DNA of 52,643 nt, taken from NCBI GenBank assembly GCA_017514975.1, contig JAFWIF010000032.1, positions 1-52,643 on the forward strand, given 5' to 3'. Every line of letters starts with the position of its first letter. Positions within the stretch are counted from its first letter, which is position 1. Position numbers and translations under genes: made by a program. Below the pieces are notes generated by a model. It worked only from the letters and a program-made list of their open reading frames with translations. It ran no database searches and was not told the origin of the DNA. Origin of the DNA: Candidatus Saccharimonadota bacterium (lineage in GTDB: Bacteria; Patescibacteriota; Saccharimonadia; Saccharimonadales; Saccharimonadaceae). Shown in pieces: positions 1 to 44,678 of this stretch.

Positions 1-857
1 TCCTAAAGACTGAGACGGTTACCGAAGGTGGGGCGGCTACTGCTCCTGCTAATCCTTCTCGCACTGGTTACGAGTTTAAGGGTTGGGATAAAGCCTTCAA
101 CAATATTACTGCTAATACTACCGTTAATGCTACGTGGGATGAATATAGCTATACTATAAAATTCGACGCCAACACTGGCACCGGCAACATGCCAAACCAG
201 AGCTTTACCTACTCCGAACAAAAAGCCCTTACCAAAAACACTTTCACCAAAGACGGTTACAGTTTCAAGAATTGGAATACTATGCCAGACGGCTCCGGCA
301 TTAGTTACACGGACGCACAAACCCTTAAGAGCGTCTCCGCAATTAATAACCACACCATCACTCTCTACGCTCAGTGGCAAGCCAATGCCGCTCCCACGCC
401 AAGCTATACCATCCACTTCGACGCCAACACTGGCACCGGCAATATGTCCAATCAGACCTATAACCTCGATCAATCCACCGCTCTCCCTGCAAACGGCTTC
501 ACCAAAGACGGTTACAGTTTCAAAAACTGGAACACCATACCAGACGGCTCCGGCATTAGTTACGGCGATCGCCAAGAGATTAACAACCTCGCCTCTGCCA
601 ACCAAACCATCACGCTCTACGCCATCTGGGAGAAGAATCCTGATCCAGTTATCCCAGATGATCCCGCACCAGTTGACCCAGCTCCCGAAGAACCAACCAA
701 CCCAGCCAATCCCGAACCAACCGAAACTCCAGCCAATCCTAAGGCCATCGACAATCCTAAAACCGCCGCCGAGCACCTCCCCGCCATCATCGCCACTCCA
801 ACCATCCTCCTCGGCCTCACCGCTACCGGCTACCATTTCTTGAGGAAGCGCCGCTAA
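1..857 (+). CDS. InlB B-repeat surface protein, 3' end (5' truncated by window edge)
   Basis: The frame is open from the first base, so the start lies upstream. Three InlB B-type (Listeria-Bacteroides, Flg_new) repeats are visible: a partial one ending around FKGWDKAF, then two full 85-residue copies starting FDANTGTGNM and containing GYSFKNWNT and ITLYA.W. A Pro/Glu-rich spacer follows, probably spanning the cell wall. The C-terminus has a sorting signal: NPKTA, a hydrophobic stretch and an RKRR tail. The protein should be exported and covalently anchored by a sortase. NPKT resembles the NPQTN-type signal of class B sortases, and the only sortase in the window (41028-41975) is of that class. 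InlB repeats are typical of adhesins, but the ligand cannot be read from the sequence. Confidence 0.85.
   Translation, partial: LKTETVTEGGAATAPANPSRTGYEFKGWDKAFNNITANTTVNATWDEYSYTIKFDANTGTGNMPNQSFTYSEQKALTKNTFTKDGYSFKNWNTMPDGSGISYTDAQTLKSVSAINNHTITLYAQWQANAAPTPSYTIHFDANTGTGNMSNQTYNLDQSTALPANGFTKDGYSFKNWNTIPDGSGISYGDRQEINNLASANQTITLYAIWEKNPDPVIPDDPAPVDPAPEEPTNPANPEPTETPANPKAIDNPKTAAEHLPAIIATPTILLGLTATGYHFLRKRR
162..563 (+). repeat. 255-bp intragenic direct repeat (InlB repeat units)
   Basis: Two in-frame units start at 162 and 417, offset by 255 bp (85 codons). The best conserved block is 66 bp, at 243-308 and 498-563, with five silent or near-silent differences. Such identity could support unit gain or loss by recombination. 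Confidence 0.85.
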
Positions 858-1142: not shown

Positions 1143-2900
1143 CTACGCCAAGTCGCTCGCCACCCTGTTTACTTCCTCCATCGTCGTCATCCCAGACAAA
1201 ACTTTCAAAATCCCATCTTGACGCATCGTAACCGTACCTTTCATTTTTGCAACTCTCATAATATCACCAGATGTCGCATGCGCCACAATCAACTTCTGTA
1301 TGTCTTCATCAACCGCAATCGTTTCGTAAAGCCCCGCACGCCCCGCATAACCACCAGGCGCATCTTCCGTTTCTATTCCCTTTACTAGCGTATAGCTCTC
1401 CGCAGTCGCCAAAGGCAAGCTCGGGTAACCCAAAGACTCACTTACCTGCACTACGTCTTCTGCCGTTTGCGGTAAAATACCACCCACAATTTGCTTTATT
1501 GCGTTCGTCTCAAGTTCAGAAGTCTGAAAACTCTCTCGTCTCTCCGCCACTCGTCGCACCAACCTCTGCCCAATCACGGTGTTCAACGTCGAAGCAATCA
1601 AAAATGGCTCAATCCCCATATCTAAAAGACGCGGCAAAATCCCCGCCGCTGAGTTGGTGTGCAAAGTCGAGAACACCAGGTGCCCAGTTAACGCCGCCTG
1701 CACCGCCAAATTCGCAGTTTCTTCATCACGAATCTCTCCCACCATCACTACATCTGGATCTTGACGCAAAATCGAACGCAATCCTGAGGCAAAGGTCAGC
1801 CCAGCATCCGTATTAATCTGAATCTGATTTACGCCATCCATCTTATACTCAACCGGATCCTCGAGCGTCACAATATTTATCGAGTCATTTTTAATTTTCT
1901 TTATCAATGCATAAAGAGTAGTAGATTTTCCAGACCCAGTCGGTCCAGACGTCAAAATCATTCCATTCGGCCGCGAGATTCCCTCCAGTACATCTCTCAG
2001 CGCACGCCCCGTCATGCCCATCTTCTCAACCTCCATCGACGTTCCACTCTTGTCCAAAAGCCTAATCACCACTTGTTCACCCCAAACCACCGGCGACGTC
2101 GCGATACGCAAGTCGATTACATTATCACCAACCTGCACTGCAAACTGACCATCTTGCGGGACCCTATGCTCATCAATCTTCAACTTAGCCATAATCTTAA
2201 TACGCGATACTAACGCAGCCTCAATCGATTTTGACAATTCCATAGTTTTACGCAAAACACCATCAATTCTCATTCTAATCACCAAAGCATGCTCAAGCGG
2301 CTCAATATGGATATCGCTCGCTTTTGATTTTGCGGCATACTCAAGAATCGAAGTCAAAGCTTTCGAAATTGGCGAATCCTGCGTAATCGTCAAAACTTCC
2401 CCATCGCCATGACTACTACGCGCTTCTTCCTGCTGCGCAGCCTTATCAACGCTCCTCAGGTCAGCAACATACTGCATCAAAGCACTCTGAATACCAGCCT
2501 CCGACGTCATCATCGGTATCAACGGCATTTTTACTAACGTCGCAACATAATCCGTACGCTGGATATTTGTCGTATCCAACATCGCCACGATCAAACTTCC
2601 GTCTTTCTCGGCCAACGGGATTACTTTGGATCTCTGCGCCACATCTTGAGGTATCTTCAACAAAATCGCCCTATCAAGCCTCACATTTCGCAAATCTACG
2701 TAAGGAGTGTTTGTTGCTATTGCAGATGCATGCTGAATCGCGTCATCCGTCACTAAATTCTTACTCTTTAAAAAAGTCAAAATCGGCTGGCCACTTTGCT
2801 CGGCTTCCGCATACGCGCTCTGCACCAAGGCCGCATCAACAAGCCCATCTTCAACAAGTAGGCTTACGACCTTATCCTGCAATCCCTTACTTAGTAACAT
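1143..2900 (-). CDS. pilB: Type IV pilus assembly ATPase PilB/GspE family
   Basis: 585 residues, normal length for the GspE/PilB extension ATPase, which powers pilin polymerisation from the cytoplasmic face of the inner membrane. The N-terminal ~150 residues look like the MshEN/GspE-N domain. The motor domain has Walker A GPTGSGKSTT around residues 318-327 (Lys325), a Walker B region DPDVVMVGEIRD near 380-390 and the His box FSTLHTNSA. The tetracysteine zinc motif of many PilB proteins is absent. The ATG is preceded by GGAG at good spacing. It is the last large gene of a minus-strand operon with pilM, pilN and pilO. No PilC platform, prepilin peptidase or PilT gene lies in the window. Confidence 0.93.
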   Translation of the reverse strand: MLLSKGLQDKVVSLLVEDGLVDAALVQSAYAEAEQSGQPILTFLKSKNLVTDDAIQHASAIATNTPYVDLRNVRLDRAILLKIPQDVAQRSKVIPLAEKDGSLIVAMLDTTNIQRTDYVATLVKMPLIPMMTSEAGIQSALMQYVADLRSVDKAAQQEEARSSHGDGEVLTITQDSPISKALTSILEYAAKSKASDIHIEPLEHALVIRMRIDGVLRKTMELSKSIEAALVSRIKIMAKLKIDEHRVPQDGQFAVQVGDNVIDLRIATSPVVWGEQVVIRLLDKSGTSMEVEKMGMTGRALRDVLEGISRPNGMILTSGPTGSGKSTTLYALIKKIKNDSINIVTLEDPVEYKMDGVNQIQINTDAGLTFASGLRSILRQDPDVVMVGEIRDEETANLAVQAALTGHLVFSTLHTNSAAGILPRLLDMGIEPFLIASTLNTVIGQRLVRRVAERRESFQTSELETNAIKQIVGGILPQTAEDVVQVSESLGYPSLPLATAESYTLVKGIETEDAPGGYAGRAGLYETIAVDEDIQKLIVAHATSGDIMRVAKMKGTVTMRQDGILKVLSGMTTMEEVNRVASDLA

Positions 2901-2927
2901 TCCTTAACTCCGGCCACCCTTAATTAA

Positions 2928-3239
2928 CTACTCCTCGTTCTCTGTCGATTTTTGCGCCTCTTCCGTCTCTCTATTCGGGTCCACACAACTATTCAAGTCT
3001 TCGTCCCACGTATAACCACTTCTACACTGACCAACATAAACCTCAACCGTCGGATTAAGCATGTATGGATTAAACGCATCTTCATCCGGCTCTGCGAGCT
3101 CCGAGCTAATCGCATCCATATACTTTACTTCTTCGGTTTTATCTTTCGGATCCCCAAAGATAAGATTACCAAGGAAGAAAGACCCTACAATCGAAGCCGC
3201 CGCGATTACTATCACTAACGCTATATCGTTATTTTTCAT
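2928..3239 (-). CDS. Small membrane protein in the type IV pilus operon
   Basis: 103 residues with an N-terminal transmembrane helix (about residues 7-28) and an acidic extracytoplasmic part. It contains NPYMLNPTVEV and two cysteines (QCRSGYTWDEDLNSC) that could form a disulfide. Its ATG overlaps the stop of the PilO-like gene by one base (TAATG), which indicates translational coupling and a role with the pilus. Position and topology recall the alignment-complex protein PilP, but I see no PilP sequence match, so the function is open. Confidence 0.6.
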   Translation of the reverse strand: MKNNDIALVIVIAAASIVGSFFLGNLIFGDPKDKTEEVKYMDAISSELAEPDEDAFNPYMLNPTVEVYVGQCRSGYTWDEDLNSCVDPNRETEEAQKSTENEE

Positions 3240-4102
3240 TATTCTTCACTCCCTTCATCATCACTGCTACTCTCGCCGCTACATTTTTCGCTTGTCTTAT
3301 CAGCACATACTTGCTTAGACTTAAAATCTAGCGCTACTCTATCCGAATAATATGCCTTATAAGTCCCCGTATATTCTATTTCGTCAGTCCCCATACTTTC
3401 ACCACTCCAGCTTAACGAAAACGATTCTACGTCGAAATTCCTGATTGAGTGCTCTATCGCCGTCAACGCCAATGCAATCCTATCAGCCTTATCAGTTAAA
3501 GAAATTCCTACACCTGTTACATGAGTCGCGCTACTGCTGCTACCACCTCCTTCGCCTTCATCTTCGCTAAAATCCTCACTATCACTATCTTCAGAAGCTT
3601 CACCTCCGCTCAACGACTCAATATTTACCTCACTCACATTCAATAGCCAGTTCATACTAGCCAGCGTCGCATTCTTATTCAACGTTGAAGGCAAGGCGTC
3701 CGGAATCACCCTAAGCGAAGTACACATCGCAATCGCATCAATTCCAGCATTCTTATTATCCGACCCCTCTTCCTCTTTACCCTTATTTGTCTTACCAATA
3801 CATTTACGATCATCGCGCTCTCTTGCAACCACTTCCAAATTATCATTATCCGCCATCGTTCTTACTGACTGATCAAGGCTACTCAAATTTTCTTGGGATT
3901 CCTTAAATCCTTCAATTGCAGTCTTCTGCTCTTCGAGCACGTTCCCATTAAAAGCAATCAATTTAACTAGATAAATCGTCGCCACAATACTTATCCCAAT
4001 CGCCATCGAAGCCAGACACACTGCGATGAACATATTCTTCTGCGCCCTATCGATTTTTGCACGTTTTTCAATCGCCGCGCCTTCTTTCTTCTTATTTGCC
4101 AT
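3239..4102 (-). CDS. PilO-like type IV pilus assembly protein
   Basis: 287 residues: a basic cytoplasmic start (KKKEGAAIEKRAKIDRAQK), one transmembrane helix (about 28-48), a coiled-coil-prone segment (EEQKTAIEGFKESQENL), then an extracytoplasmic domain with an acidic/Ser-rich linker around residues 165-190. This architecture and its place directly after the PilN-like gene (11-bp overlap) fit PilO, which pairs with PilN to link PilM to the outer parts of the machine. Sequence similarity to classical PilO is weak, so the assignment rests mostly on topology and synteny. Confidence 0.65.
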   Translation of the reverse strand: MANKKKEGAAIEKRAKIDRAQKNMFIAVCLASMAIGISIVATIYLVKLIAFNGNVLEEQKTAIEGFKESQENLSSLDQSVRTMADNDNLEVVARERDDRKCIGKTNKGKEEEGSDNKNAGIDAIAMCTSLRVIPDALPSTLNKNATLASMNWLLNVSEVNIESLSGGEASEDSDSEDFSEDEGEGGGSSSSATHVTGVGISLTDKADRIALALTAIEHSIRNFDVESFSLSWSGESMGTDEIEYTGTYKAYYSDRVALDFKSKQVCADKTSEKCSGESSSDDEGSEE

Positions 4103-5306
4103 TTTCTACCTCCCCTTCAATTTTTTCAGCTTTTTGCGTAAACATATCCCTAATCTGAACATAGCTATCCGTTGCATTCTGTCTTGTCGGACCTTTAATC
4201 TGCAAATGCTTGTTTGACGCCAGAAATATCTCAGGATTAACCGGCACCGTCGCACTAAAGTTTACCACTCTCGCACCAGTATCTTCGTCTTTTCCATAGG
4301 TCGCCTCACCCGTTTCAATCTCCGATTCAGGTCTCAACATTGGACAAGCATTCTTCGTCTCTTCCTCATCCAATTCCCCGTTTTCATCATATTTCAAACA
4401 CTCACTCTCAAAATAATATCCTTTTTTGAGTGTTATCTCGTCACTACCAAAGTCTACTCCCTCGCTATTGAAAACCTCACATTCTTTACCGCCCTCACGC
4501 ATCGTACATTCACGATCCTTTTCATTTACATAGGTTCTCTTTATAGCGATCCATTCAACATTTTCTAATTCATTTTCGTCTTCTCCAAAAGTAACCTCTT
4601 CCTCTTCCCCTTCTTCCTTCTCGGTCGAGCTCTTCTCCTCTTTGAAATACGGTGCTTCGCACCCAGGCGCACCTTTTGCGTAAAGACCGTATATCTTGTC
4701 GTCGATAACGACCTCCCTAACAATGCACATTGACGGTATATCTACAAAAGATTCACCATCTACTCTTTTATAGGCTCCGTGATCATAGTACGACTTACCC
4801 GCATTCTTAATAAACGCATCAACCGCTCTAAACCCAATATTGTTCGATGACGACGCATTTGCCTCAAAAGAAATCGTCGATTCTCCCGTCAAATCTGTTG
4901 TTAATTCTGTAATTTTTACCGTATCATCAGGTCCGTCTGGCAACATCACGTCAAGCAACCCAAAAACTCTCCATATAGCCTTTCGTTTTTCATTAATCGA
5001 ATTTAATTTCGACATCTGATCTTGGATTGTCAACAAATCCTCAACGCTATCATACTTCGCAATAGCAATCCCGAACTTATTACTATCACATTTCACGTCA
5101 CCACTTGCCCCTTCCGAGCGACAGGTGATTTCGGTTTTATTATTCGCTATTGTCAGCTTCTGCGCACCAACTATCAGTCCTAGCGTCGCCAAAAGCCCAC
5201 CGCAAGCCGCCGCAACCACTACGCAGATAAATATAATTAAGTTTCGTAGCTTTTGCTTTTTCAGCAACTCGCTTTTTACATCAGGAACTAAACTAATTTC
5301 AAACAT
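4092..5306 (-). CDS. PilN-like type IV pilus assembly protein
   Basis: 404 residues, longer than typical PilN (~200). The start MFEISLVPDVKSELLKKQK resembles the PilN N-terminus (INLLP...), the segment that binds PilM, and is followed by a transmembrane helix at about residues 24-48. The outer part carries an acidic Glu/Lys insert (about 225-250) and ends in a PilN-like segment with an IKGPTRQNATDSYVQI motif. It starts four bases after pilM ends and overlaps the PilO-like gene. The enlarged outer domain with several Cys residues may be lineage-specific. Confidence 0.7.
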   Translation of the reverse strand: MFEISLVPDVKSELLKKQKLRNLIIFICVVVAAACGGLLATLGLIVGAQKLTIANNKTEITCRSEGASGDVKCDSNKFGIAIAKYDSVEDLLTIQDQMSKLNSINEKRKAIWRVFGLLDVMLPDGPDDTVKITELTTDLTGESTISFEANASSSNNIGFRAVDAFIKNAGKSYYDHGAYKRVDGESFVDIPSMCIVREVVIDDKIYGLYAKGAPGCEAPYFKEEKSSTEKEEGEEEEVTFGEDENELENVEWIAIKRTYVNEKDRECTMREGGKECEVFNSEGVDFGSDEITLKKGYYFESECLKYDENGELDEEETKNACPMLRPESEIETGEATYGKDEDTGARVVNFSATVPVNPEIFLASNKHLQIKGPTRQNATDSYVQIRDMFTQKAEKIEGEVENGK

Positions 5307-5310
5307 AATA

Positions 5311-6357
5311 CTACCTACTATTCGACCTTTCCGCTAAACCAATCGCTACCGAAAACTCCGCCGCAACTTGCGCCAACGCTTGCTGCTGCTGCTGCGTCAC
5401 TTGTACCATCTGCCACGGATTTCCCTGCACTGCCGGCACGCCAGTCTTTGTTTGCACATATTCAGCCATATGCGGAATCGCACCCGCAAAACCCGACAAT
5501 ACAATCTGCGTAATATAAATATTCGGATACTTTGTCTGGAAAAACTTCACAGATTTTGAGATTTCATTCGCAAAATTTTCCAACACTCTATCAAGCGCCT
5601 TAAATACTTGCCCCTCAAGCTTATCCTGCGCAAGTCCAAACTTCAGAATAAACTGTCTAGCCTGATCCTCTTTTACATTTAGCGAACTCGCTACCGTACG
5701 CGTCAGCACCGTCAATCCTCCAGGCAAGGTGCGCACCAATCTCGGCGCTCCATACACAACCGACAAATCCGCCGCATCTTCACCGAAATCTACGATCATC
5801 TGCGCGTCCGTCGACCCAGGCGTCGCTAGCGCTCTCGACATCGCAATCGGCTCTGGCTCCATTGCTACCAGATTAAAACCTATCGACTCAACACTCTCCA
5901 TGCGCTCTTCCGCATATTGAATTGCTGTCGATGACAACAAGACTTCCGTAATCTTCGGATCGTTGGGCGACGGGCCTAAGAATACATAATCAACTTTCGC
6001 ATCATCAATCGGCATCGGAATATACTGATCCGTATGATATTTTACGATCTTCTCCATCGATTTTTGGTCTTGCGTCGGCACCTCGATTACTGTCGTAAAC
6101 GTCTTTTCCGACGGCAAACCTAGCACGATATTTTTCGTCTTTATTCCAGCCTGTTCGGCTGCACTTGCGATTGTCTCGCCCAAGCGGCGTTTCCCCGCTT
6201 CGCTACTGTCTTGCAAGACCTTTCTGCTTACAGGTACGTATGCAAACTTATTCAAACTCCAGCCACGCTTCGCGTCGCCAGAAAGTTGCACCATCCTCAA
6301 AGCATCCGTCCCTATGTCCAGCGCAAAGAAGTCGCCCACACCATATCCTAATTTCAT
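5311..6357 (-). CDS. pilM: Type IV pilus assembly ATPase-fold protein PilM
   Basis: 348 residues, the usual PilM length. PilM is an FtsA/actin-fold cytoplasmic protein that binds ATP and the PilN tail. The first nucleotide-binding motif is visible (FALDIGTDALRMVQL, about residues 11-25), as are a second phosphate region (MIVDFGEDAADLSVV) and the adenosine region (ITQIVLSGFAGAIPHMAEY). A Gln-rich stretch (TQQQQQALAQ) lies near the C-terminus. It is the first gene of the pilM-N-O-x-B operon. Confidence 0.9.
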   Translation of the reverse strand: MKLGYGVGDFFALDIGTDALRMVQLSGDAKRGWSLNKFAYVPVSRKVLQDSSEAGKRRLGETIASAAEQAGIKTKNIVLGLPSEKTFTTVIEVPTQDQKSMEKIVKYHTDQYIPMPIDDAKVDYVFLGPSPNDPKITEVLLSSTAIQYAEERMESVESIGFNLVAMEPEPIAMSRALATPGSTDAQMIVDFGEDAADLSVVYGAPRLVRTLPGGLTVLTRTVASSLNVKEDQARQFILKFGLAQDKLEGQVFKALDRVLENFANEISKSVKFFQTKYPNIYITQIVLSGFAGAIPHMAEYVQTKTGVPAVQGNPWQMVQVTQQQQQALAQVAAEFSVAIGLAERSNSR

Positions 6358-12070: not shown

Positions 12071-13584
12071 CTAAACTCTCCTTCTCACCCCAATCATCGC
12101 CCCCAGCCCCGCAACCGCTCCCCCAATCACCATAAAGACAGTCGCATAATTCTCGCCTGCCGTCTTAGGATTTTTTACTACAGTCGCCGCTTTTGCGCTA
12201 TAAGTATTCACAAATTCCACCGCACCGCTAGAAACTTTCACCGCATTTGCCTCGTCCTTACCATAGCCCTCTCGCCCTGCACTGCTCTCAACATACGCCC
12301 CTTTGCCGCCTTTCGCGCTCACTAAACCGTTCTCCGTCTTCTCCCACGCGCGCCATATACTCCCGTCATTCGAAACTTCCACGCTCGCCATCCACGTATC
12401 GCCATTCTTCGCCCACTTCACCCCACTTCCGCCAATCGTAAACTCCTCGACCGCATCTTTCGTCTTCGTCACTACCGGCACGCTCCCCGCCAGAGGCGCA
12501 TCATCGGGTGTTAATGCGCCATCGCTATCCCAAGTACCGGACCGACTCGTAAAATTCGGCAAATTCCCATTTTCTAGCACGCCCGAAAGCCTAAACATAC
12601 CCAGAAATCTCCCTACCTCAATCTCGCCATCCATAGTCGGTGATGAGCCCATCTTCTGATACTCGTTCCCGACTCTCCTCAAATCCCACCCTTCAATTGC
12701 CGATGCATCTTCTAACGACGTTGTTCTATTGAACATTTGCTCAGCCATAACGAGATTTGAGACATTCCAACCCCCAATCGGCGCTAAAGTCGTGATCCTG
12801 CGCGCATTTTTAAATATACAAAACATATCAACCACGCTTTGCGTATTCCAATTCGCTAAAGGCGAAAGGTCTGTGTAGCTCATATAGTTTTTCTCGTCAT
12901 CCAAATCCGATCCGCTGCGCACAGTCCCAAACATATAACGCATACCCTTCACGTTCCCTGTATCCCAATTCGCCAAAGGCGAAAGATTGACAAGGCTCGT
13001 GTCATTTGCGAACATTCCGCCCATTACCTCTACGTATGTCGTATTTAGTGCACTTACCCCATCAATATCTGCAAGATTACGCATCCCCCTAAACATATGC
13101 GCAGAGTTGCTATTCATATAGATATTGTCCGCCTCGCTATAATAATAAATCGTACCGTTATCAAACCACATATAGACAGCTAAACCGCTTTCCGCCACGT
13201 TCTCCATCGTCGCCCCTCTCGCTACCGCTTCGTCGTATTTCGCTTTTTCTGCTTTCTTAAATGCATAGATGGTCGTATTAGGGCTTGCGTAATCCGATGC
13301 TCCACTATTTCCCGCCAACGTCTTCATCGCAATCGCTACTTCTAGCCCGGTTTTCAGTGTCGCCGACACCTTCTTTAAGTGTATCTCCGTATCTTCCGAT
13401 CGCACCGCTTCACTATCCCCCGCCCACTTCTTCGTCACCGTAATCCTGCGCGTCGTCGCACCGCTATTTGTTGCCGCCTGCACCGTCGCCATATTTCCCC
13501 CGCCAACCACAAATCCCGCCAAAAGCAGCAACGCTGACGCTAAGAATTTTCTCTTATACCCCCCCCCCGAATTCTATTTCTCAT
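12071..13584 (-). CDS. BspA-like (DUF285) sortase-anchored surface protein, out of frame at a G10 tract
   Basis: The body encodes a signal-peptide core (FLASALLLLAGFVVGGG), a CnaB-like start (RRITVTKKWAG), a DUF285/BspA-type repeat region (ANWDTGNVKGMRYMF, ANWNTQSVVDMF, GGWNVSNLVMAEQMF, EGWDLRR; roughly residues 170-290) and a sorting signal NPKTAG, hydrophobic helix, RRRV. BspA-like proteins are surface adhesins. The only ATG with a good ribosome-binding site (AGGA at 13598-13595) is at 13584, and ten G residues follow the fifth codon. With ten G the frame ends after 14 codons; with 11 or 8 it joins the body perfectly, giving MRNRIRGGGYKRKFLASA. As sequenced the gene is off, unless an internal TTG (13531) is used, or the count is a sequencing error. 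Confidence 0.8.
13559..13568 (-). repeat. Homopolymeric G10 tract (candidate phase-variation switch)
   Basis: Ten consecutive C on the plus strand, G on the coding strand, lie between codon 5 and the signal-peptide core of the surface protein gene. Slipped-strand changes by one base would switch the frame on or off. Confidence 0.75.
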
Positions 13585-17672: not shown

Positions 17673-18785
17673 TCAGCCATACTTCATTCTTTTCCCACTG
17701 ACTACTAATAGACCTCCGCTCGCCAATCCTGCCGCACCAATCAGTTCTATCGCCCCATTCGCAACCCCAGTTTCAACAGTCTCTGCTTTCGTATTCACGA
17801 ATTTCGTCACATTTCCCAACAAAAACGTCTCCTCTTCTGCTGCCTCTTCTGAGCTTAGCGGCTCCGGAAACGTCACCTTTGACACTATTTTACAAGCACA
17901 TTCTCGCCACGTTCCTTTATCTACAACTATCGAATATGTATCCGCCCCCTCCTCACGCACATCATACGTAAACAAAATTGGCACCTGCCGCAGCCCATCT
18001 GCTCTTTTCCCTATTGTCGCCACCTGTCCATGCTTTAAATAAATGTAATTTTTTTGTCCAGCAATATACTCCGTCTGCGTCCGCACTACTTCTCCTAAAT
18101 ATACTACCGTCTCATCTTGTCCGTGAATCTCGTACCTATCTCCCACATTTTCTTCCTGTATTTCAACTAAAAATTTAAAATATTCACCCGCGTCCGCCAT
18201 ACTCCCCTCAACCTCTTTTGCAACTTCAATATATGTCATCTTTTGCGTAGTCTCAAAAACTATTTCCGCCTTCGCTCCATTACTCCCTTTTGTCGCCAAG
18301 CTCGCAATCTCGGCAACTAATCCCCCAGTCATCTTTCCGCTTTCATCTATCTTATTCTTCACTGTAATCAGCACTTCGTACGTTTCGCGGTCTTTCGGCA
18401 TCATAATTGGCGCATTTGAGCTTCTTTCCCGAATTACGAATCTATATTGTCCTGCTCTCGAAAATTTCAATTCCGACAAATCTAACTCCTTCGTCACCGT
18501 CGCAACGTGGCGCACGTCCGGAACTACTCTTACGAAATCAACCGAAAAACTATTCATGAGCCCCACTATCGGTTCAGGATTTCCTGCACTTTCCGCTACG
18601 CCATATAAAAAACTCTCATTCAGCGGATTCGTCACTCCCGCCACTTTCTTTGTTATCTTAATCTTTGCTTCTTTGTCCACTATATCTCCCAGCCTAAAAG
18701 TCGCAGCATATCCATTGTCGCCACACAACAACCCTAATCCTATAACAACCCCCATCAAAAACCCACCCAAAATCATTTTCCCCAT
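17673..18785 (-). CDS. FctA-like pilin-type surface protein (stand-alone paralogue)
   Basis: 370 residues: signal peptide (about 1-28), two pilin domains of the streptococcal Spy0128/FctA type and a C-terminal sorting signal AETVETGV, hydrophobic helix, KRMKYG. Domain 1 opens with KIKITKKVAGVTNPLNESF and contains the typical LDLSELKFSRAGQYRFVIRE strand pair; domain 2 opens with MTYIEVAKEVEG. The order and spacing match the two pilins at 41956-43014 and 43587-44678 (both have MTY.E/LTY.E and DEYFK-type segments). Such domains normally carry Lys-Asn isopeptide bonds. It sits outside the pilus operon, alone between tRNAs and a glycosyltransferase, so it may be a tip or alternative subunit. Confidence 0.75.
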   Translation of the reverse strand: MGKMILGGFLMGVVIGLGLLCGDNGYAATFRLGDIVDKEAKIKITKKVAGVTNPLNESFLYGVAESAGNPEPIVGLMNSFSVDFVRVVPDVRHVATVTKELDLSELKFSRAGQYRFVIRERSSNAPIMMPKDRETYEVLITVKNKIDESGKMTGGLVAEIASLATKGSNGAKAEIVFETTQKMTYIEVAKEVEGSMADAGEYFKFLVEIQEENVGDRYEIHGQDETVVYLGEVVRTQTEYIAGQKNYIYLKHGQVATIGKRADGLRQVPILFTYDVREEGADTYSIVVDKGTWRECACKIVSKVTFPEPLSSEEAAEEETFLLGNVTKFVNTKAETVETGVANGAIELIGAAGLASGGLLVVSGKRMKYG

Positions 18786-34989: not shown

Positions 34990-37206
34990 ATGTCTACTTT
35001 TGACGCAGAATGGCGCAACGGTCACTATACCCCCTCTAACCGTCAAATCAACATCTCACCCTACGGACAGACCTACACGCACTCCCCTTCCCCAAAAAAC
35101 CGCAAAAACCACAAGCTCCGTCTTGGCATCGTCATTGTTCTTGCTATCCTCGCTTTAGCCGGCGGCACTACTGCCATCATGCAATTTCACTCCAATCAAC
35201 AGACCAATGCCGCTACTACCCAAACTACTGATTTTGACACTGCTCTTGCTAACGCTAAAAAGCTCAACGGTCTTACCGTCACCACTACCAAACAAACTAA
35301 AGCCGTCAAAAACAGCGCCGAGGCTCAAGCGCTAATCGACGCCGAGACTCAAAAACTCACCCAAGCCATCGCTACGCAAACCGCCAACAATAAAACCTAT
35401 GAAAACCGCTCCAAAGATCCAAATTATATCTTCCATAAACTTACCGATCAAAACAAAGCCGACGGCTACACCCCTGAAATACTCTGGAAATTCCTCAATG
35501 ACAACGGCATCACAAATGTAAAAGATTTATATCCTATCGAGCTTCCCAATATCTACGAAACAAAAGTCGCTCCAATTACCAATGCTACCCGCATTACAAG
35601 CACTCGCCAAAAAGACCTACTAAACTGGGGCCTCGAAGCTGGCGCCATCATCTATAATATCCGGCAAGGCGATTACTATATCTTCCCCAACGCCCTGAAA
35701 GATAACAATAATAAATCCGTCGATATTAAATTCACTATCAAAAACTTTACCGTATATGAAGACGCACTCCAGCCGATGATGGTACGAGACACTATGGGCT
35801 TCTCTATTGGCGGCGGCGTCTCAAGCGTCACTTGGGATATCTCGTTCTTATATCACGACACCCAGCAACCTTTTACCGCTAATTTTATCTGGCTCAACCA
35901 CGACCTCGACGGCGGCGGCTGGGGCCTACTCAAACATTGGGGCGGCGACTTCAGCTGGCCCGCCGTAACAGGTGCCCACGGCCAAGCTTTCAAATCTCCT
36001 AACACCGCCCAATTTACGCCCTCCAAATCTGCCGTCAAAGCCATACCTTACCAAGGTAGCACTATTTATGCTGGCTCCCTCCTCACCGAAGGCGGCGAAA
36101 TATATAACATTGATCCACCTCACGTCCAAGGACAAGTCCTGTCCCTGCTTAAAAACAAAAATTCCTTTGAATACACTTTCTATTCCGATGTCAGCATGGA
36201 CCTCACGCGCTCAAGTAAGCTCGGAGACGCCGATTATTCGCAATTAGTCGACAACGGCGTTACTCTCCCTGCCACTCCGCTATCTCAAGCAACTATCGAC
36301 GCTTGGGCTGCGCGCAATCGCCAAGCCGTCGCCAACAATGAACTTTTCTATCGTACCGCATCTGGATGGGACGCCGATTACGATCATTTAGTCGACTCAT
36401 GGGCCTACGTTGGCTTTGCTGGCGACATGCTAAATATGCAATTACCCAACCTTACCACGTCTTCCGTCTCGGTTACCGAGTACACCTTCACTCAGAAAAC
36501 CACCGTCAACTATGTCGACATAACAACCAATAAAACTCTCACCTCAACGACCGCTACCGGCAATCCAAACGCCACTTTTACTTGCAAAGACGATACAAAA
36601 GTTACAAACTACATCAATACCGGCTATGACTTTGTCAGCACTAACTGTCCTACCACGCCAAAATTTGACTCTAATCTCGACTCTGATCAAAGTTATATCG
36701 TTTACCTAACTCCCCATATCGAAGAAATCCCACACGACAACCCAAAAGAAGGAGGAACGCCCACTGATCGCCCCAAAGTCAAATATCCAGACGGTGTCGA
36801 CGAGGCTGACCTAATCAAAGAAGTCACTCGTACTATCTATTACGTCTACCACGATGGTCGCACCGCTTCAGAACCAGTCGTCCAAAAAACTATCCTCACC
36901 AGAGATGCCGTCTTTAATTACGTTACCAAAGAAGTCGAATACAGCGACTGGACTGTTGCAAAACTCGACTCAGTCAAATCTCCAACAATCGCCGGTCACA
37001 CCGTCGACATCAACAATGTTGATGGCATTGACATCTCCATCAAAGACGAACCCGAAAACGTCACCGTTACCTATACCCCCGAACAACTAACTGTCGCAAA
37101 CCCAAAAACCAAAGACACATCTAACCTCCCCTTAATTCTCGCAATCTCCATACCCGCCACCTCTGCCATGTTCGCCTCTCTGTTCTTCTTCCTCCGCCGC
37201 CGCTAA
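34990..37206 (+). CDS. Mucin-binding-type (MucBP/Mub) sortase-anchored adhesin
   Basis: 738 residues. A 45-residue polar basic N-terminus precedes one hydrophobic segment (about 45-66), which may be an unusually long signal peptide or a membrane anchor. A helical region and a large beta-rich domain follow (about 200-490; GGGVSSVTWDISFLYHD, HDLDGGGWGLLKHWGGDFSW), then a MucBP-like domain (TVNYVDITTNKTL, about 500-575) and a Mub B2-like domain (TRTIYYVYHDGRTA, VTKEVEYSDWTV, VKSPTIAGHTVD; about 610-700). The end is a sorting signal: NPKTKD, hydrophobic helix, RRR. MucBP and Mub domains bind mucins or glycans, consistent with adhesion to a host surface or host bacterium. Confidence 0.85.
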   Translation: MSTFDAEWRNGHYTPSNRQINISPYGQTYTHSPSPKNRKNHKLRLGIVIVLAILALAGGTTAIMQFHSNQQTNAATTQTTDFDTALANAKKLNGLTVTTTKQTKAVKNSAEAQALIDAETQKLTQAIATQTANNKTYENRSKDPNYIFHKLTDQNKADGYTPEILWKFLNDNGITNVKDLYPIELPNIYETKVAPITNATRITSTRQKDLLNWGLEAGAIIYNIRQGDYYIFPNALKDNNNKSVDIKFTIKNFTVYEDALQPMMVRDTMGFSIGGGVSSVTWDISFLYHDTQQPFTANFIWLNHDLDGGGWGLLKHWGGDFSWPAVTGAHGQAFKSPNTAQFTPSKSAVKAIPYQGSTIYAGSLLTEGGEIYNIDPPHVQGQVLSLLKNKNSFEYTFYSDVSMDLTRSSKLGDADYSQLVDNGVTLPATPLSQATIDAWAARNRQAVANNELFYRTASGWDADYDHLVDSWAYVGFAGDMLNMQLPNLTTSSVSVTEYTFTQKTTVNYVDITTNKTLTSTTATGNPNATFTCKDDTKVTNYINTGYDFVSTNCPTTPKFDSNLDSDQSYIVYLTPHIEEIPHDNPKEGGTPTDRPKVKYPDGVDEADLIKEVTRTIYYVYHDGRTASEPVVQKTILTRDAVFNYVTKEVEYSDWTVAKLDSVKSPTIAGHTVDINNVDGIDISIKDEPENVTVTYTPEQLTVANPKTKDTSNLPLILAISIPATSAMFASLFFFLRRR

Positions 37207-41027: not shown

Positions 41028-41975
41028 CTATCTCAGCTTGTCGACCACTAGCTTAATAAAAATACCAACCACTCCTATAAACATTATTGTCAGAGCAACT
41101 TTTTTCACCGGAAACGCTCTCGCCTCCTTTTCATGCGAACTCTCCGCTTCCACAACCTGATTCGACGCAGAATCACCATCACTTTCACTCTCTATATCTT
41201 TATCTATCGCTCCATCTATCTCGGCCTCTCCGTCCGAAATTAATTCCAACGCACCCAGCGCAACATCTCTATTCGCCTTAACACTATCATCGCAAGTCGA
41301 TAGAATAACTATTTTATCTACAGCGCCTATATCACTCCGAACTCTTTTAGCCTTGCTCTGAAAATATTGCACAATCGCATCATTCTCACCCTTCGCCAAC
41401 GCCGATAGCCCATAAACCTTCAAATCAAATGCACTCACTTCCGCATACGCTAAAATTTTCAGCCGATATACACCCTCTTCTGCGTATACTCTTCCTTCAC
41501 CATTATTCTCAAAAAAATCCGCGTCCTCAAATCTCGCCACATCTGAAAACATGCGATTTTTACTCATATGATGCCCATATAGAATACTATAGTCATCCAA
41601 AAAACTTCTATTTCTGTAGTCGAGTATGATACTACCCGCCGCCGCATACTCCTTTTTATAATCCAAATTCAAATATTCTGAATTGTCCGTACTTTGTAAA
41701 ATGGGATAATCAATATTAGTATTATCGACTTTTATCCAGCCAACTATATCCCCATTAATCTGTTTCAAATCTTTCAACGAAAAATCCCCACCATCATCTC
41801 TACTCGGCCTCAATCTCAGCACGTCATCTCCAAGATTCGCACTATCAACCACAGATACCGCATCATACAGCGCAAATCCGCCCAACGCAATCACGCCCAA
41901 AAACACCAAACTCGCAATGATCGTAATCGCGACATCTATTACCGAAATTACCTGACTAAGAATTTTTTTCAGCAT
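41028..41975 (-). CDS. Class B-type sortase (pilus operon)
   Basis: 315 residues. N-terminal membrane helix (about 12-38), then a sortase domain with the class B features INGDIVGWIKVDNTNIDYPI, GSIILDYRN, YGHHM (catalytic His135), ILSTCDD (Cys228) and ANRDV (Arg236). A second C-terminal helix (about 290-310) after an acidic linker is unusual for SrtB and more like pilin-polymerising sortases. In the Streptococcus pyogenes FCT region a class B sortase polymerises FctA pilin. This one overlaps the minor pilin gene by 20 bp, so pilus assembly is its likely job. It may also anchor the NPKT proteins, since it is the only sortase in view. Confidence 0.92.
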   Translation of the reverse strand: MLKKILSQVISVIDVAITIIASLVFLGVIALGGFALYDAVSVVDSANLGDDVLRLRPSRDDGGDFSLKDLKQINGDIVGWIKVDNTNIDYPILQSTDNSEYLNLDYKKEYAAAGSIILDYRNRSFLDDYSILYGHHMSKNRMFSDVARFEDADFFENNGEGRVYAEEGVYRLKILAYAEVSAFDLKVYGLSALAKGENDAIVQYFQSKAKRVRSDIGAVDKIVILSTCDDSVKANRDVALGALELISDGEAEIDGAIDKDIESESDGDSASNQVVEAESSHEKEARAFPVKKVALTIMFIGVVGIFIKLVVDKLR

Positions 41976-43014
41976 TCCGCTTTTTTGTCTTCATCAGTAA
42001 TCCAATCCCCGCACCACCGATACCAACCAACACTACAAACGGCCAAAAATTCATTAATATTCCAGTCAGCGCCACATCAAAATTCTTTTTATGCACAACT
42101 AGGATCATATTTTCAGCCCCATTCTCCGCTAAGCCAATCTTGCCAGAAAATATCACTTCTCTTCCATTAATTGTCGTCTGCCATTTTCTTGATCCAATTT
42201 TCTCCACCGACACATTTGTTCCGATTGGAATTTGCCCAAATCCACCATCGGCACAGGTCGGACAGCCGAGCCCAATTTTAGCCACTTGATCCGCCTTCAG
42301 ATATACATATACGTAATTATCGCCGCCTTCTTTGACCTCATAGAAATTCGTCGTCTCCACCTCTTCACCGTCAAACACCACTTTTGCATCTTGCCCAGAT
42401 ATTACGAATTTATCTCCAGGTTTTCCGTCAATAACTACCTTGTACTTAAAATATTCATCTTTATCAGCCTGAGCACCTTCAGTGCGCGTTTCGATCGCAA
42501 AATAAGTCATTTTCGTCACATTATCAAAAACAAGATTGGCCTTCTCTCCCTTATCATAATCCCAGCCCAAACCGTATACTGTTTTTACTAATTCGCCCAT
42601 CTTATATTTCATCTCAACAGAAATACGATATTTTTTCGCACTAACCGGATAATTAGTAGCATCACTCGAGAAAACCTCCTCTACATCATATTCGTACACG
42701 CCTTTTTCTCTATAAGTCGTGTCACTAAAGTCAATCACCACATCTTTTTCTACTTTACCGCTCTCATCGCTTTGCGCCCCACTAAAATCCACTATTACCT
42801 CAGATGGTTCATTCGCTGCCCCAGCAGGATTCGAGCTCTTTGGACTAATTCTCAACTTATAAGTATTCGTCATCGGATTTGCTACATTATTTACTAGCAC
42901 CTTAACATTTACCTTATCTGCACTGTCGGCATAGACAGCATAATTCGCAAAAATCCCCAGCCCTAAAGCTAGAAATAAACTCATTATATATAGTTTCCAA
43001 TTCGCTCTTTTCAT
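41956..43014 (-). CDS. FctA-like pilin, second subunit
   Basis: 352 residues: signal peptide (about 1-29, NYAVYADSADK), two Spy0128/FctA-type domains and a sorting signal with NFDVALTGI, hydrophobic helix and a KKRNAEKNS tail. Domain 1: VNNVANPMTNTYKLRI and VVIDFSDTTYREKGVYEYDV; domain 2 from MTYFAIETRTEG with DEYFKYKVVIDG. A pair of cysteines (GCPTCADGG) in domain 2 could form a disulfide. It follows the SipA-like gene by one base and may be the minor or base subunit. Lys/Asn/Glu positions suggest isopeptide bonds, not proven here. Confidence 0.85.
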   Translation of the reverse strand: MKRANWKLYIMSLFLALGLGIFANYAVYADSADKVNVKVLVNNVANPMTNTYKLRISPKSSNPAGAANEPSEVIVDFSGAQSDESGKVEKDVVIDFSDTTYREKGVYEYDVEEVFSSDATNYPVSAKKYRISVEMKYKMGELVKTVYGLGWDYDKGEKANLVFDNVTKMTYFAIETRTEGAQADKDEYFKYKVVIDGKPGDKFVISGQDAKVVFDGEEVETTNFYEVKEGGDNYVYVYLKADQVAKIGLGCPTCADGGFGQIPIGTNVSVEKIGSRKWQTTINGREVIFSGKIGLAENGAENMILVVHKKNFDVALTGILMNFWPFVVLVGIGGAGIGLLMKTKKRNAEKNS

Positions 43015-43015
43015 T

Positions 43016-43573
43016 TTATATATTTCTCACTTGAATTTTACCTATTACTTTTCCTGATATTTTACTAATCTCAACCCCTCCAAAACTCCTCGAATCCCCT
43101 AGATTGCTTCTCGCATCATTAAGCGTAAATACTGAACCATCCTCAACTCTGTACGGAAATTGAATAGCCGCCTTCTCATCTTTAATCGTCTCATAATAAA
43201 CAGTTTCTTCCTCGACATTCCCATCTATCAGCACTTCACCATCCTCATTAATATCAACCGTCTGCCCGCCCTCAGCCACTACTCTCTGTACCACCAGCTT
43301 TCCATCCTTCTCAAAGACCACTACATCCCCTCTCTTAAAACTATGTTCTATTCTTGAATAAATCAATAGCGCACCGTCTGCAATATTTGGTTTCATTCCT
43401 ACACCAGACATCGTCGTCAAGCCTATGATGAAACCAAAAATTACCACAAACAAACCAGCAATTACGCAAATTTTGACTAATAGCCGTATTGCTTTCCTTT
43501 TTAAAGAATCGTTAGACTCGCGTGGACGAACGGTCTTCTTACTAATTTTAAGTTCATTCGACCCTTCGTCCAC
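43016..43573 (-). CDS. SipA-like pilus assembly protein (signal peptidase I fold, catalytic residues lost)
   Basis: 185 residues from GTG 43573. An N-terminal helix (about 33-57) is followed by the type I signal peptidase fold: GMKPNIADGALL (box B), RGDVVVFEKDGK, QRVVAEGGQTVDI (box D) and FTLNDARSNLGDSRSFG (box E). The nucleophile Ser of SMxPT is Gly59, and the Lys of the KRV motif is Gln96, so it cannot act as a peptidase. Streptococcal SipA, encoded next to FctA, has also lost both residues and is needed for pilus polymerisation; the same chaperone-like role fits here. A TTG start at 43615 is possible but less likely: GTG has AAAGGA nine bases before it and begins just after the pilin stop. 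Confidence 0.88.
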   Translation of the reverse strand: MDEGSNELKISKKTVRPRESNDSLKRKAIRLLVKICVIAGLFVVIFGFIIGLTTMSGVGMKPNIADGALLIYSRIEHSFKRGDVVVFEKDGKLVVQRVVAEGGQTVDINEDGEVLIDGNVEEETVYYETIKDEKAAIQFPYRVEDGSVFTLNDARSNLGDSRSFGGVEISKISGKVIGKIQVRNI

Positions 43574-43586
43574 TTTGCCCGTTCCT

Positions 43587-44678
43587 TTAACGCTTGCGTT
43601 CGCCCTTAGCGCCAAACTTCAGTGCAACAATACCAACACCACCCAAAATCGCCAACACTATAAATGGCCAATAATTTACAAAAATACCAGTCAGCACATC
43701 TTCATTTTTTTCATTTACATACGTTGCTTTATTCTTTGTCGCAAAATCATTAGCACCAGTTGCCACTACGGTAGTCTCTGCCAATGTCGCGTTGCTAGCG
43801 CCATTTACTGTCACGGTATAGTCATCATCAGCCGCTTCCGTTACGGTCCACTTTGCCCCAACCGGAATCTGATTTTTACCATCACTTGTCTGACCAATTT
43901 TTATCGTCTGGCTCCCCTTAATGTAAACTACGCAGTCCACATTAAAAGAACACTGAGTCGCCGATCCATGACCAGAATCCGCACCTGTCACTGTATATTT
44001 ATCCGTCGCAAGACCAGTACCGTTAATTTTCACTGTAAACTTAAAATATTCATCGGTATTCGCCGTGGTACCTTTTAGCTGTTTTGCAATTTCAACATAT
44101 GTCAAATTTGCGTTTTCTTCAAACACGATCTCAGCCTTTCCGGCTACAGTCCCGTTATTCGCCGTCACTACGCTAGTCGTTCCGGTCGCTGTCGCAGACG
44201 CTGTTAAGGCACCCGTAGGAGTATTATTCGCATCAACCACATTGCGAACCGAAACATAGAAATACCAGCTCGCATCACTATCGACTGGGTATGCCGTACT
44301 ATTGCTCGATGCGGTTTCTGTTATCTTAAAGACATAATCCCCGACCTCTGTAAATTTAAATGCCGACAAATCTACAGTTTTTGTCGCCGTAGCCGTTCCA
44401 CTTGTTGGCGCAACGTTCTCAAACGGAATCGTAAATGTCGTTGGTGAAATCGTCGCCGCTGTCGTTGAATATCCAGACCCCGAGGCTCGTTCAATTTTAT
44501 ACGTAAACGTATTCGTCACGTTATTTTGCGCGTTGTCCACTTCGCGCTTAACTACAATTGACTTTTTGCTATTATCCCACGTCGCTTCTGCGGCCGCACC
44601 CGCATCCATCGCCCCAATAGCGAAACCCCCAAACAGAGTTGCCACTAAGGCTAGTAATATTTTATTTATTTTCCCCAT
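43587..44678 (-). CDS. FctA-like major pilin, first gene of the pilus operon
   Basis: 363 residues: signal peptide (about 1-30, ending DAGAAAEA), domain 1 starting SIVVKREVDNAQNNVTNTF (Lys44 in the position of the isopeptide Lys of Spy0128), VDLSAFKFTEVGDYVFKITE, domain 2 from LTYVEIAKQLKGTTANTDEY to ATYVNEKNEDV (candidate Lys/Asn pair) and sorting signal DVLTGI, hydrophobic helix, KGERKR. In Spy0128 the equivalent signal is EVPTG directly after the last isopeptide Asn; spacing is the same here. Its strong promoter and first position suggest the shaft subunit. Confidence 0.88.
   Translation of the reverse strand: MGKINKILLALVATLFGGFAIGAMDAGAAAEATWDNSKKSIVVKREVDNAQNNVTNTFTYKIERASGSGYSTTAATISPTTFTIPFENVAPTSGTATATKTVDLSAFKFTEVGDYVFKITETASSNSTAYPVDSDASWYFYVSVRNVVDANNTPTGALTASATATGTTSVVTANNGTVAGKAEIVFEENANLTYVEIAKQLKGTTANTDEYFKFTVKINGTGLATDKYTVTGADSGHGSATQCSFNVDCVVYIKGSQTIKIGQTSDGKNQIPVGAKWTVTEAADDDYTVTVNGASNATLAETTVVATGANDFATKNKATYVNEKNEDVLTGIFVNYWPFIVLAILGGVGIVALKFGAKGERKR

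What the first reader, a model, noticed from the sequence alone, without database searches (positions are those of the whole stretch)
41028..44678. FCT-like sortase pilus locus in a Saccharibacteria-like genome
Four contiguous genes (FctA-like pilin, SipA-like protein, second FctA-like pilin, class B sortase) reproduce the core of the Streptococcus pyogenes FCT pilus region. Covalent isopeptide pili are classically described from Firmicutes and Actinobacteria; an episymbiotic CPR cell could use one to hold its host. Together with the type IV pilus operon this gives two unrelated pilus systems within 45 kb.
Basis: partly seen in the sequence, partly recalled or inferred. Interest (0 to 1): 0.8.

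Follow-up and report, generated by a model that had tools for sequence, protein, structure and literature searches.

The report
Covalent-pilus operon in an episymbiotic Saccharibacterium
A gut or rumen Saccharibacterium, a tiny bacterium thought to live on other bacteria, carries a set of genes for the covalently linked pili known from streptococci; most sampled members of its genus carry this operon, so the lineage may use such fibres to hold its hosts.

Summary
Four overlapping or abutting minus-strand genes (44678-41028) encode an FctA-type pilin, a SipA-like protein, a second FctA-type pilin and a class B sortase. Both pilin models match Spy0128 (Z 19.0 and 17.2). The SipA-like protein is closest to S. 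pyogenes SipA (7e-20) and lacks the signal-peptidase Ser/Lys dyad. The sortase keeps His, Cys and Arg. It is not contamination: at least 27 of 45 genomes of the genus carry the operon, several between dnaE and ftsJ, often behind a large adhesin gene. In samples of the order and phylum, strong hits outside the genus were limited to two genomes of the same family. The nearest outside relatives are gut Clostridia with the classic adhesin-sipA-pilin-sortase order. Both pilins keep the inter-subunit lysine and a sorting signal, so covalent polymerisation is the best reading. The isopeptide claim is only partly right: one of four pilin domains keeps the Lys-Glu-Asn triad. Host attachment is inferred. 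I found no published sortase pilus in Saccharibacteria. Noticed in passing: a second pilus locus of the genus (only its pilin remains in the window) has in-frame TGA codons, several at tryptophan positions, in most relatives.

The parts
43587..44678 (-). pilA: FctA/Spy0128-type two-domain pilin (363 aa) with a hydrophobic N-terminal signal segment, sorting signal VLTG, C-terminal TM helix and basic tail; likely shaft pilin
   Evidence: DUF7601 E 1e-9; pLDDT 84; Spy0128 Z 19.0, 259 residues; closest of the two to the pilins of relatives
44136..44138 (-). pilA K181: aligned exactly with Spy0128 K161, the inter-subunit lysine
44082..44084 (-). pilA K199 of the domain-2 isopeptide triad (Spy0128 K179)
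   Evidence: alignment; lies in the first strand of domain 2 in the model (195-202)
43836..43838 (-). pilA E281 of the domain-2 isopeptide triad (Spy0128 E258)
43713..43715 (-). pilA N322 of the domain-2 isopeptide triad (Spy0128 N303)
   Evidence: last strand of domain 2 (317-323)
43686..43697 (-). pilA sorting motif V328-L-T-G331; T330 and G331 invariant across 29 pilins
43016..43615 (-). sipA: signal-peptidase-I-like assembly protein (199 aa, TTG start) without the catalytic dyad: Ser to G73 (43397-43399), Lys to Q110 (43286-43288)
   Evidence: SipA 4n31 E 7e-20; active SPase I 1e-5; alignment; SipA paper PMC4049620
41956..43014 (-). pilB: second FctA/Spy0128-type pilin (352 aa), sorting motif ALTG (315-318, at 42061-42072), both isopeptide triads lost
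   Evidence: pLDDT 85; Spy0128 Z 17.2, 249 residues
42541..42543 (-). pilB K158: aligned exactly with Spy0128 K161, the inter-subunit lysine
41028..41975 (-). srtB: class B sortase (315 aa); H135, C228, R236 invariant; C-terminal extension with a second hydrophobic segment not seen in most relatives
   Evidence: tree
17673..18785 (-). pilC: third FctA-type pilin (370 aa), remnant of a second pilus locus of the genus whose sipA and srtB are absent here

Best explanation
This is a sortase-assembled covalent pilus operon of the FCT type (class B sortase plus SipA), established in one Saccharibacterial genus known from gut and rumen samples. Sec exports PilA and PilB, and their C-terminal sorting signals hold them in the membrane. 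SrtB cleaves the xLTG motif between T and G and joins the threonine to a lysine of the next subunit (PilA K181 or PilB K158), aided by the catalytically dead SipA, as in S. pyogenes. PilA is the likely shaft subunit, stapled internally by one isopeptide bond in domain 2. PilB is a second shaft, tip or basal subunit. A tip adhesin is probably supplied in trans, since the genome has further adhesins with FctA-like domains and TG-type signals, and the chain is probably anchored by another of its sortases. The fibre most likely serves adhesion, plausibly to the host bacterium. Shown here: genes, homology, predicted folds, residues, conservation in the genus, purifying selection on relatives' genes. 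Inferred: polymerisation, anchoring, adhesion, host binding.
For: Fold and family. Residues: sortase H/C/R invariant in 20 sequences; SipA dyad lost; pilin lysine exact in both window pilins and near the same place in 40 of 49 Saccharibacterial pilins; TG of the sorting signal invariant in 29 pilins. Operon: gene overlaps; pilin(s)-sipA-srtB conserved across the genus, often behind a sorted adhesin, several at the dnaE/ftsJ site; the window's pilA-sipA-pilB-srtB layout recurs in L074/L206 and L207 of another genus of the family. Not contamination: dnaE and ftsJ flank it in relatives too, relatives are named Saccharibacteria, contigs up to 463 kb. Purifying selection: pN/pS 0.03-0.24 for srtB and sipA between close relatives. 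Gut Clostridia carry adhesin-sipA-FctA-srtB operons. Three other sortases in the genome could anchor.
Against: No expression, filament or cross-link data exist. The isopeptide triad is lost in three of the four pilin domains, so the shaft may be less rigid than the GAS pilus. No adhesin or FctB-like basal pilin lies in the operon. The anchoring step and the host are unknown. Promoter and terminator scans found no more than chance.
Confidence: 0.78

Rival explanations
1. SrtB does not polymerise the pilins. It anchors PilA and PilB singly, or as short heterodimers, to the cell surface, so they are two-domain adhesins or a coat rather than a fibre.
For: Many class B sortases are anchoring rather than polymerising enzymes (general knowledge; PMC7900414 names both roles). 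The isopeptide staples are mostly lost, and there is no in-operon adhesin in this window.
Against: SipA is tied to polymerising class B systems (PMC4049620, PMC7900414). The inter-subunit lysine is kept exactly in both pilins. The genome has a separate class B sortase and NPKT-type surface proteins in the window, so anchoring alone would not need this operon.
Confidence: 0.12
2. The window's operon is a decaying or reassorted copy: it has lost its adhesin and gained a diverged pilin, and no longer makes a working pilus.
For: No adhesin gene. pilB has lost both isopeptide triads. The window's second pilus locus is visibly reduced to pilC. Long end branch of the window's SrtB (0.85).
Against: All four frames are open, the catalytic and cross-linking residues are kept, and the same layout exists in two genomes of another genus. 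L042 also lacks an adjacent adhesin with an otherwise normal operon.
Confidence: 0.07
3. Assembly or binning artefact: a Firmicute contig joined to a Saccharibacterial one.
For: Nearest non-Saccharibacterial relatives are gut Clostridia.
Against: The same operon sits at the same dnaE/ftsJ site in independent genomes. In the SrtB tree 43 Firmicute rows form one clade (100/96) apart from the Saccharibacterial ones; the exception is one Clostridia MAG row, L124. G+C of the operon genes is 40-45%, against 45% for the window.
Confidence: 0.02

Closest known systems
Streptococcus pyogenes FCT-2/3/4 pilus region (Cpa, SipA/LepA, FctA/Spy0128, class B SrtC, FctB)
   Same: Same pilin fold, same catalytically dead SipA, same sortase class, same inter-subunit lysine, LPXTG-like xxxTG sorting signals
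   Different: Order pilA-sipA-pilB-srtB with no adhesin or FctB gene in the operon; domain-1 isopeptide triad lost; sortase with a C-terminal hydrophobic extension; found in a CPR bacterium
Adhesin-sipA-pilin-srtB operons of gut Clostridia (Lachnospiraceae, Anaerococcus, Gemmiger; among L079-L153)
   Same: Homologous genes; nearest relatives outside Saccharibacteria
   Different: Pilin after sipA and often a further small pilin after srtB; isopeptide triads intact in most; SrtB forms its own clade
Streptococcus pneumoniae/oralis pilus islet-2 shaft pilin PitB
   Same: Related pilin fold (Z 13-15)
   Different: More distant in fold and sequence; larger pilin
Type IV pili of Saccharibacteria (PMC12206443)
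   Same: Surface fibres of the same phylum, used for host binding in N. lyticus
   Different: Non-covalent, ATPase-driven; genes at 1143-6357 of this window; unrelated to the sortase pilus

Membership tests
FCT-type (class B sortase/SipA) covalent pilus operon | Pilin of the two-domain Spy0128/FctA fold | tested here: met
FCT-type (class B sortase/SipA) covalent pilus operon | SipA/LepA-like protein without the Ser-Lys dyad | tested here: met
   G73 and Q110
FCT-type (class B sortase/SipA) covalent pilus operon | Dedicated class B sortase with catalytic His, Cys, Arg | tested here: met
FCT-type (class B sortase/SipA) covalent pilus operon | LPXTG-like sorting signals on the pilins | tested here: met
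FCT-type (class B sortase/SipA) covalent pilus operon | Inter-subunit acceptor lysine (Spy0128 K161) | tested here: met
   K181 and K158
FCT-type (class B sortase/SipA) covalent pilus operon | Intramolecular isopeptide triads in both pilin domains | tested here: not met
   by alignment present in one of four domains only (pilA domain 2); bond geometry not measured, as no coordinates were returned. The bond is separate from the sortase-made link between subunits, so I treat it as a variable trait, not as a bar to the operon type
FCT-type (class B sortase/SipA) covalent pilus operon | Tip adhesin (Cpa) and basal pilin (FctB) in the operon | tested here: not met
   none in the window operon; adhesin present in many relatives' operons and candidates elsewhere in the genome. 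Variable even within the genus
FCT-type (class B sortase/SipA) covalent pilus operon | SDS-resistant pilin polymers | not testable with these tools
   Needs expression. The claim made here is therefore that it works like an FCT pilus and is homologous in its core, not that it is an S. pyogenes FCT region
Class C (SrtC/SpaA) sortase pili | Class C pilus sortase | tested here: not met
   class B model TIGR03064 over its cut-off

The most novel reading that the evidence does not exclude
One Saccharibacterial genus carries two paralogous FCT-type covalent pilus operons for holding its bacterial hosts, and the second operon (pilin, about 100-aa mini-SipA, SrtB2; reduced to pilC in this window) is gated by reading in-frame UGA codons as tryptophan without a UCA-anticodon tRNA.
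Probability: 0.25. Interest if true: 0.88.

Novelty: new variant of a known kind. Interest (0 to 1): 0.62.

Why it matters
How CPR episymbionts hold their hosts is an open question, so far answered in Saccharibacteria with type IV pili. A covalent, sortase-built fibre would be a second, mechanically different tether, assembled by an enzyme class that can be inhibited and tested genetically. It also extends class B/SipA pili beyond Firmicutes and gives a natural set of pilins in which the domain-1 isopeptide staple has been lost, useful for asking what that bond is for. The unexplained in-frame UGA codons in the sister locus would, if translated, be an unusual gene-restricted recoding.

Tried and rejected
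Contamination: rejected (see rival 3). Spread across Patescibacteria: not found; in samples of 393 (order) and 380 (phylum) genomes, strong pilus-type sortase hits were limited to the window's genus and two genomes of another genus of its family; these are samples, and the search was by sortase profile. SipA profile A3 and the wide sortase profile A2 could not be used to scan the named genome collection (too little contiguous conservation); a narrower sortase alignment worked. Direction of transfer: the SrtB tree separates Firmicutes from Saccharibacteria but does not root reliably (outgroup branch 1.7), so donor and recipient are left open; streptococcal sortases were not in the sample. Promoters and terminators: no more than expected by chance. 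Selenocysteine as the reading of TGA in locus 2: tRNA-Sec model hits were weak and the model also rings in all 14 control genomes; the best hit in G067 is tRNA-Ser(UGA); and the most shared TGA columns are tryptophan columns. Four-base-pair anticodon-stem tRNA-Trp (PMC13092985): the one tRNA-Trp(CCA) of G067 has a five-pair stem by eye. Literature: no paper on sortase pili in Saccharibacteria or CPR in the held library; sortases themselves are reported in CPR (PMC6744442).
Full report
Observation. Sequence searches identify each. The SipA-like protein's best solved relative is S. pyogenes SipA (7e-20; true signal peptidase I only 1e-5). The sortase passes the curated class B cut-off and its relatives include 3psq, which from my own knowledge is the S. 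pyogenes pilus sortase Spy0129. Pilin B matches Spy0128 directly. The family profile matches Spy0128 at 4e-39 and other T-antigen pilins comparably.

Structure. AlphaFold models of both window pilins, built on alignments of their relatives, have mean pLDDT 84 and 85. Foldseek ranks S. pyogenes FctA pilins first for both (E 5e-15 and 2e-16), and VIA-align gives Z 19.0 over 259 residues and Z 17.2 over 249.

Key residues. Mapped on Spy0128, the inter-subunit lysine K161 is K181 in PilA and K158 in PilB. A lysine lies at about that place in 40 of 49 Saccharibacterial pilins (the set includes some sequences twice), and several of the others have one a little further upstream in a longer loop. The sorting-signal TG is invariant in 29 pilins. 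The isopeptide triads are mostly gone: domain 1 is R45/E121/E188 in PilA and V39/E113/N165 in PilB; domain 2 is K199/E281/N322 (intact) in PilA and T176/K272/H308 in PilB. In nearly all Saccharibacterial pilins the domain-1 lysine is arginine or another residue and the asparagine is mostly serine; domain 2 keeps the triad in a subset. Coordinates of the models were not available, so the triad rests on alignment and strand placement, not on measured distances. SipA has Gly73 and Gln110 where signal peptidases have Ser and Lys, matching the Asp48/Gly85 situation described for S. pyogenes SipA, which is needed for polymerisation (PMC4049620, PMC7900414). SrtB keeps H135, C228 and R236, invariant in 20 relatives.

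Distribution and neighbourhood. SipA searches of 61 genomes hit most of the genus and little else. 43 of 45 genomes of the genus have a class B sortase match. At least 27 carry the pilin-sipA-srtB operon, often with a 500-940 aa sorted adhesin in front (Cna_B, MucBP, SHIRT, InlB-type and FctA-like domains). Several sit near dnaE and ftsJ, as here. In samples of the order (393) and phylum (380), strong pilus-type sortases occurred only in this genus and in two genomes of another genus of the family. Those two share the window's pilA-sipA-pilB-srtB layout. Named relatives are Candidatus Saccharibacteria, among them MAGs from goat, sheep, yak and buffalo gut; the nearest outsiders are gut Clostridia with adhesin-sipA-pilin-srtB operons. 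In the SrtB tree 43 Firmicute rows form one clade (100/96) apart from the Saccharibacteria; one Clostridia MAG row (L124) nests among Saccharibacteria, perhaps a misbinned contig (my inference). Root and direction are unresolved. srtB and sipA of close relatives are under purifying selection (pN/pS 0.03-0.24).

Mechanism. The evidence supports a class B sortase/SipA covalent pilus, with PilA (closer than PilB to other species' pilins) as the probable shaft. PilB's place is unknown. The window operon lacks an adhesin; other sorted adhesins exist in the genome, one (C24) 50% identical over about 520 residues to a relative's operon adhesin. Anchoring could be by the separate class B sortase on C23. 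Adhesion to the host is inferred from the lifestyle of the phylum only.

Known or new. No paper in the held library describes sortase pili in Saccharibacteria or CPR; most subscription papers are not in that library. CPR sortases (PMC6744442) and Saccharibacterial type IV pili (PMC12206443) are known. I call it a new variant of a known kind: the FCT core, rearranged, with the domain-1 staple lost, in a CPR genus.

Second locus. The genus has another pilus locus: a 540-aa protein gene, pilin, about 100-aa SipA, SrtB2, near thrS. In the window only its pilin remains (17673-18785). In 17 of 25 relatives SrtB2 holds in-frame TGA, with 29 TGA and no TAA or TAG over SrtB2, SipA2 and pilin. At one invariant tryptophan column the codon is TGG in 20 and TGA in 5. 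Locus-1 sortases (33) and pilins (40) have no TGA. pN/pS between close SrtB2 pairs, most of them TGA-bearing, is 0.09-0.21. G067 has one tRNA-Trp(CCA) and no UCA tRNA among those found. TGA is a true stop for ftsJ and pilC in this window. This fits UGA read as tryptophan in this locus, but some TGA columns are not tryptophan columns in relatives, several lie near gene starts where the start may be misplaced, the events are not all independent, and no protein data exist.

Noticed in passing
L201, L203, L205, L208, L217-L226, L231, L232, L234 (second pilus locus of the genus): In-frame TGA codons (29, never TAA or TAG) in SrtB2, mini-SipA and pilin, at an invariant Trp column in 5 genomes and a second shared column in 6; genes under purifying selection; no UCA tRNA found in G067. 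Possible UGA=Trp readthrough confined to one operon.
   Followed up: partly
window 17673-18785 (-): Third FctA-type pilin in the window, remnant of the second pilus locus (between a 555-aa protein gene and thrS), without its sipA and srtB.
   Followed up: partly
window 189-857 (+), 12071-13531 (-), 34990-37206 (+): Three surface proteins with NPKT-type sorting signals and Listeria-Bacteroides repeat, DUF285 and MucBP domains: a second sorting-motif class beside the xLTG pilins, perhaps for another sortase.
   Followed up: partly
L213:321-4946 (genome contig C24): One 1541-aa open frame joins an adhesin with FctA-like domain, sorting signal and TM to a second secreted-looking protein (VWA, Fib_succ_major): an in-frame fusion with an internal sorting signal.
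   Followed up: no
Saccharibacterial pilins, e.g. L075, L081, L089, L092, L095: Several pilins of the genus that lost the domain-2 isopeptide residues carry two conserved cysteines in domain 2: a disulfide may replace the isopeptide.
   Followed up: no
L124: SrtB from a 'Clostridia' MAG contig groups inside the Saccharibacterial sortases, next to L035/L041: perhaps a misbinned Saccharibacterial contig.
   Followed up: no
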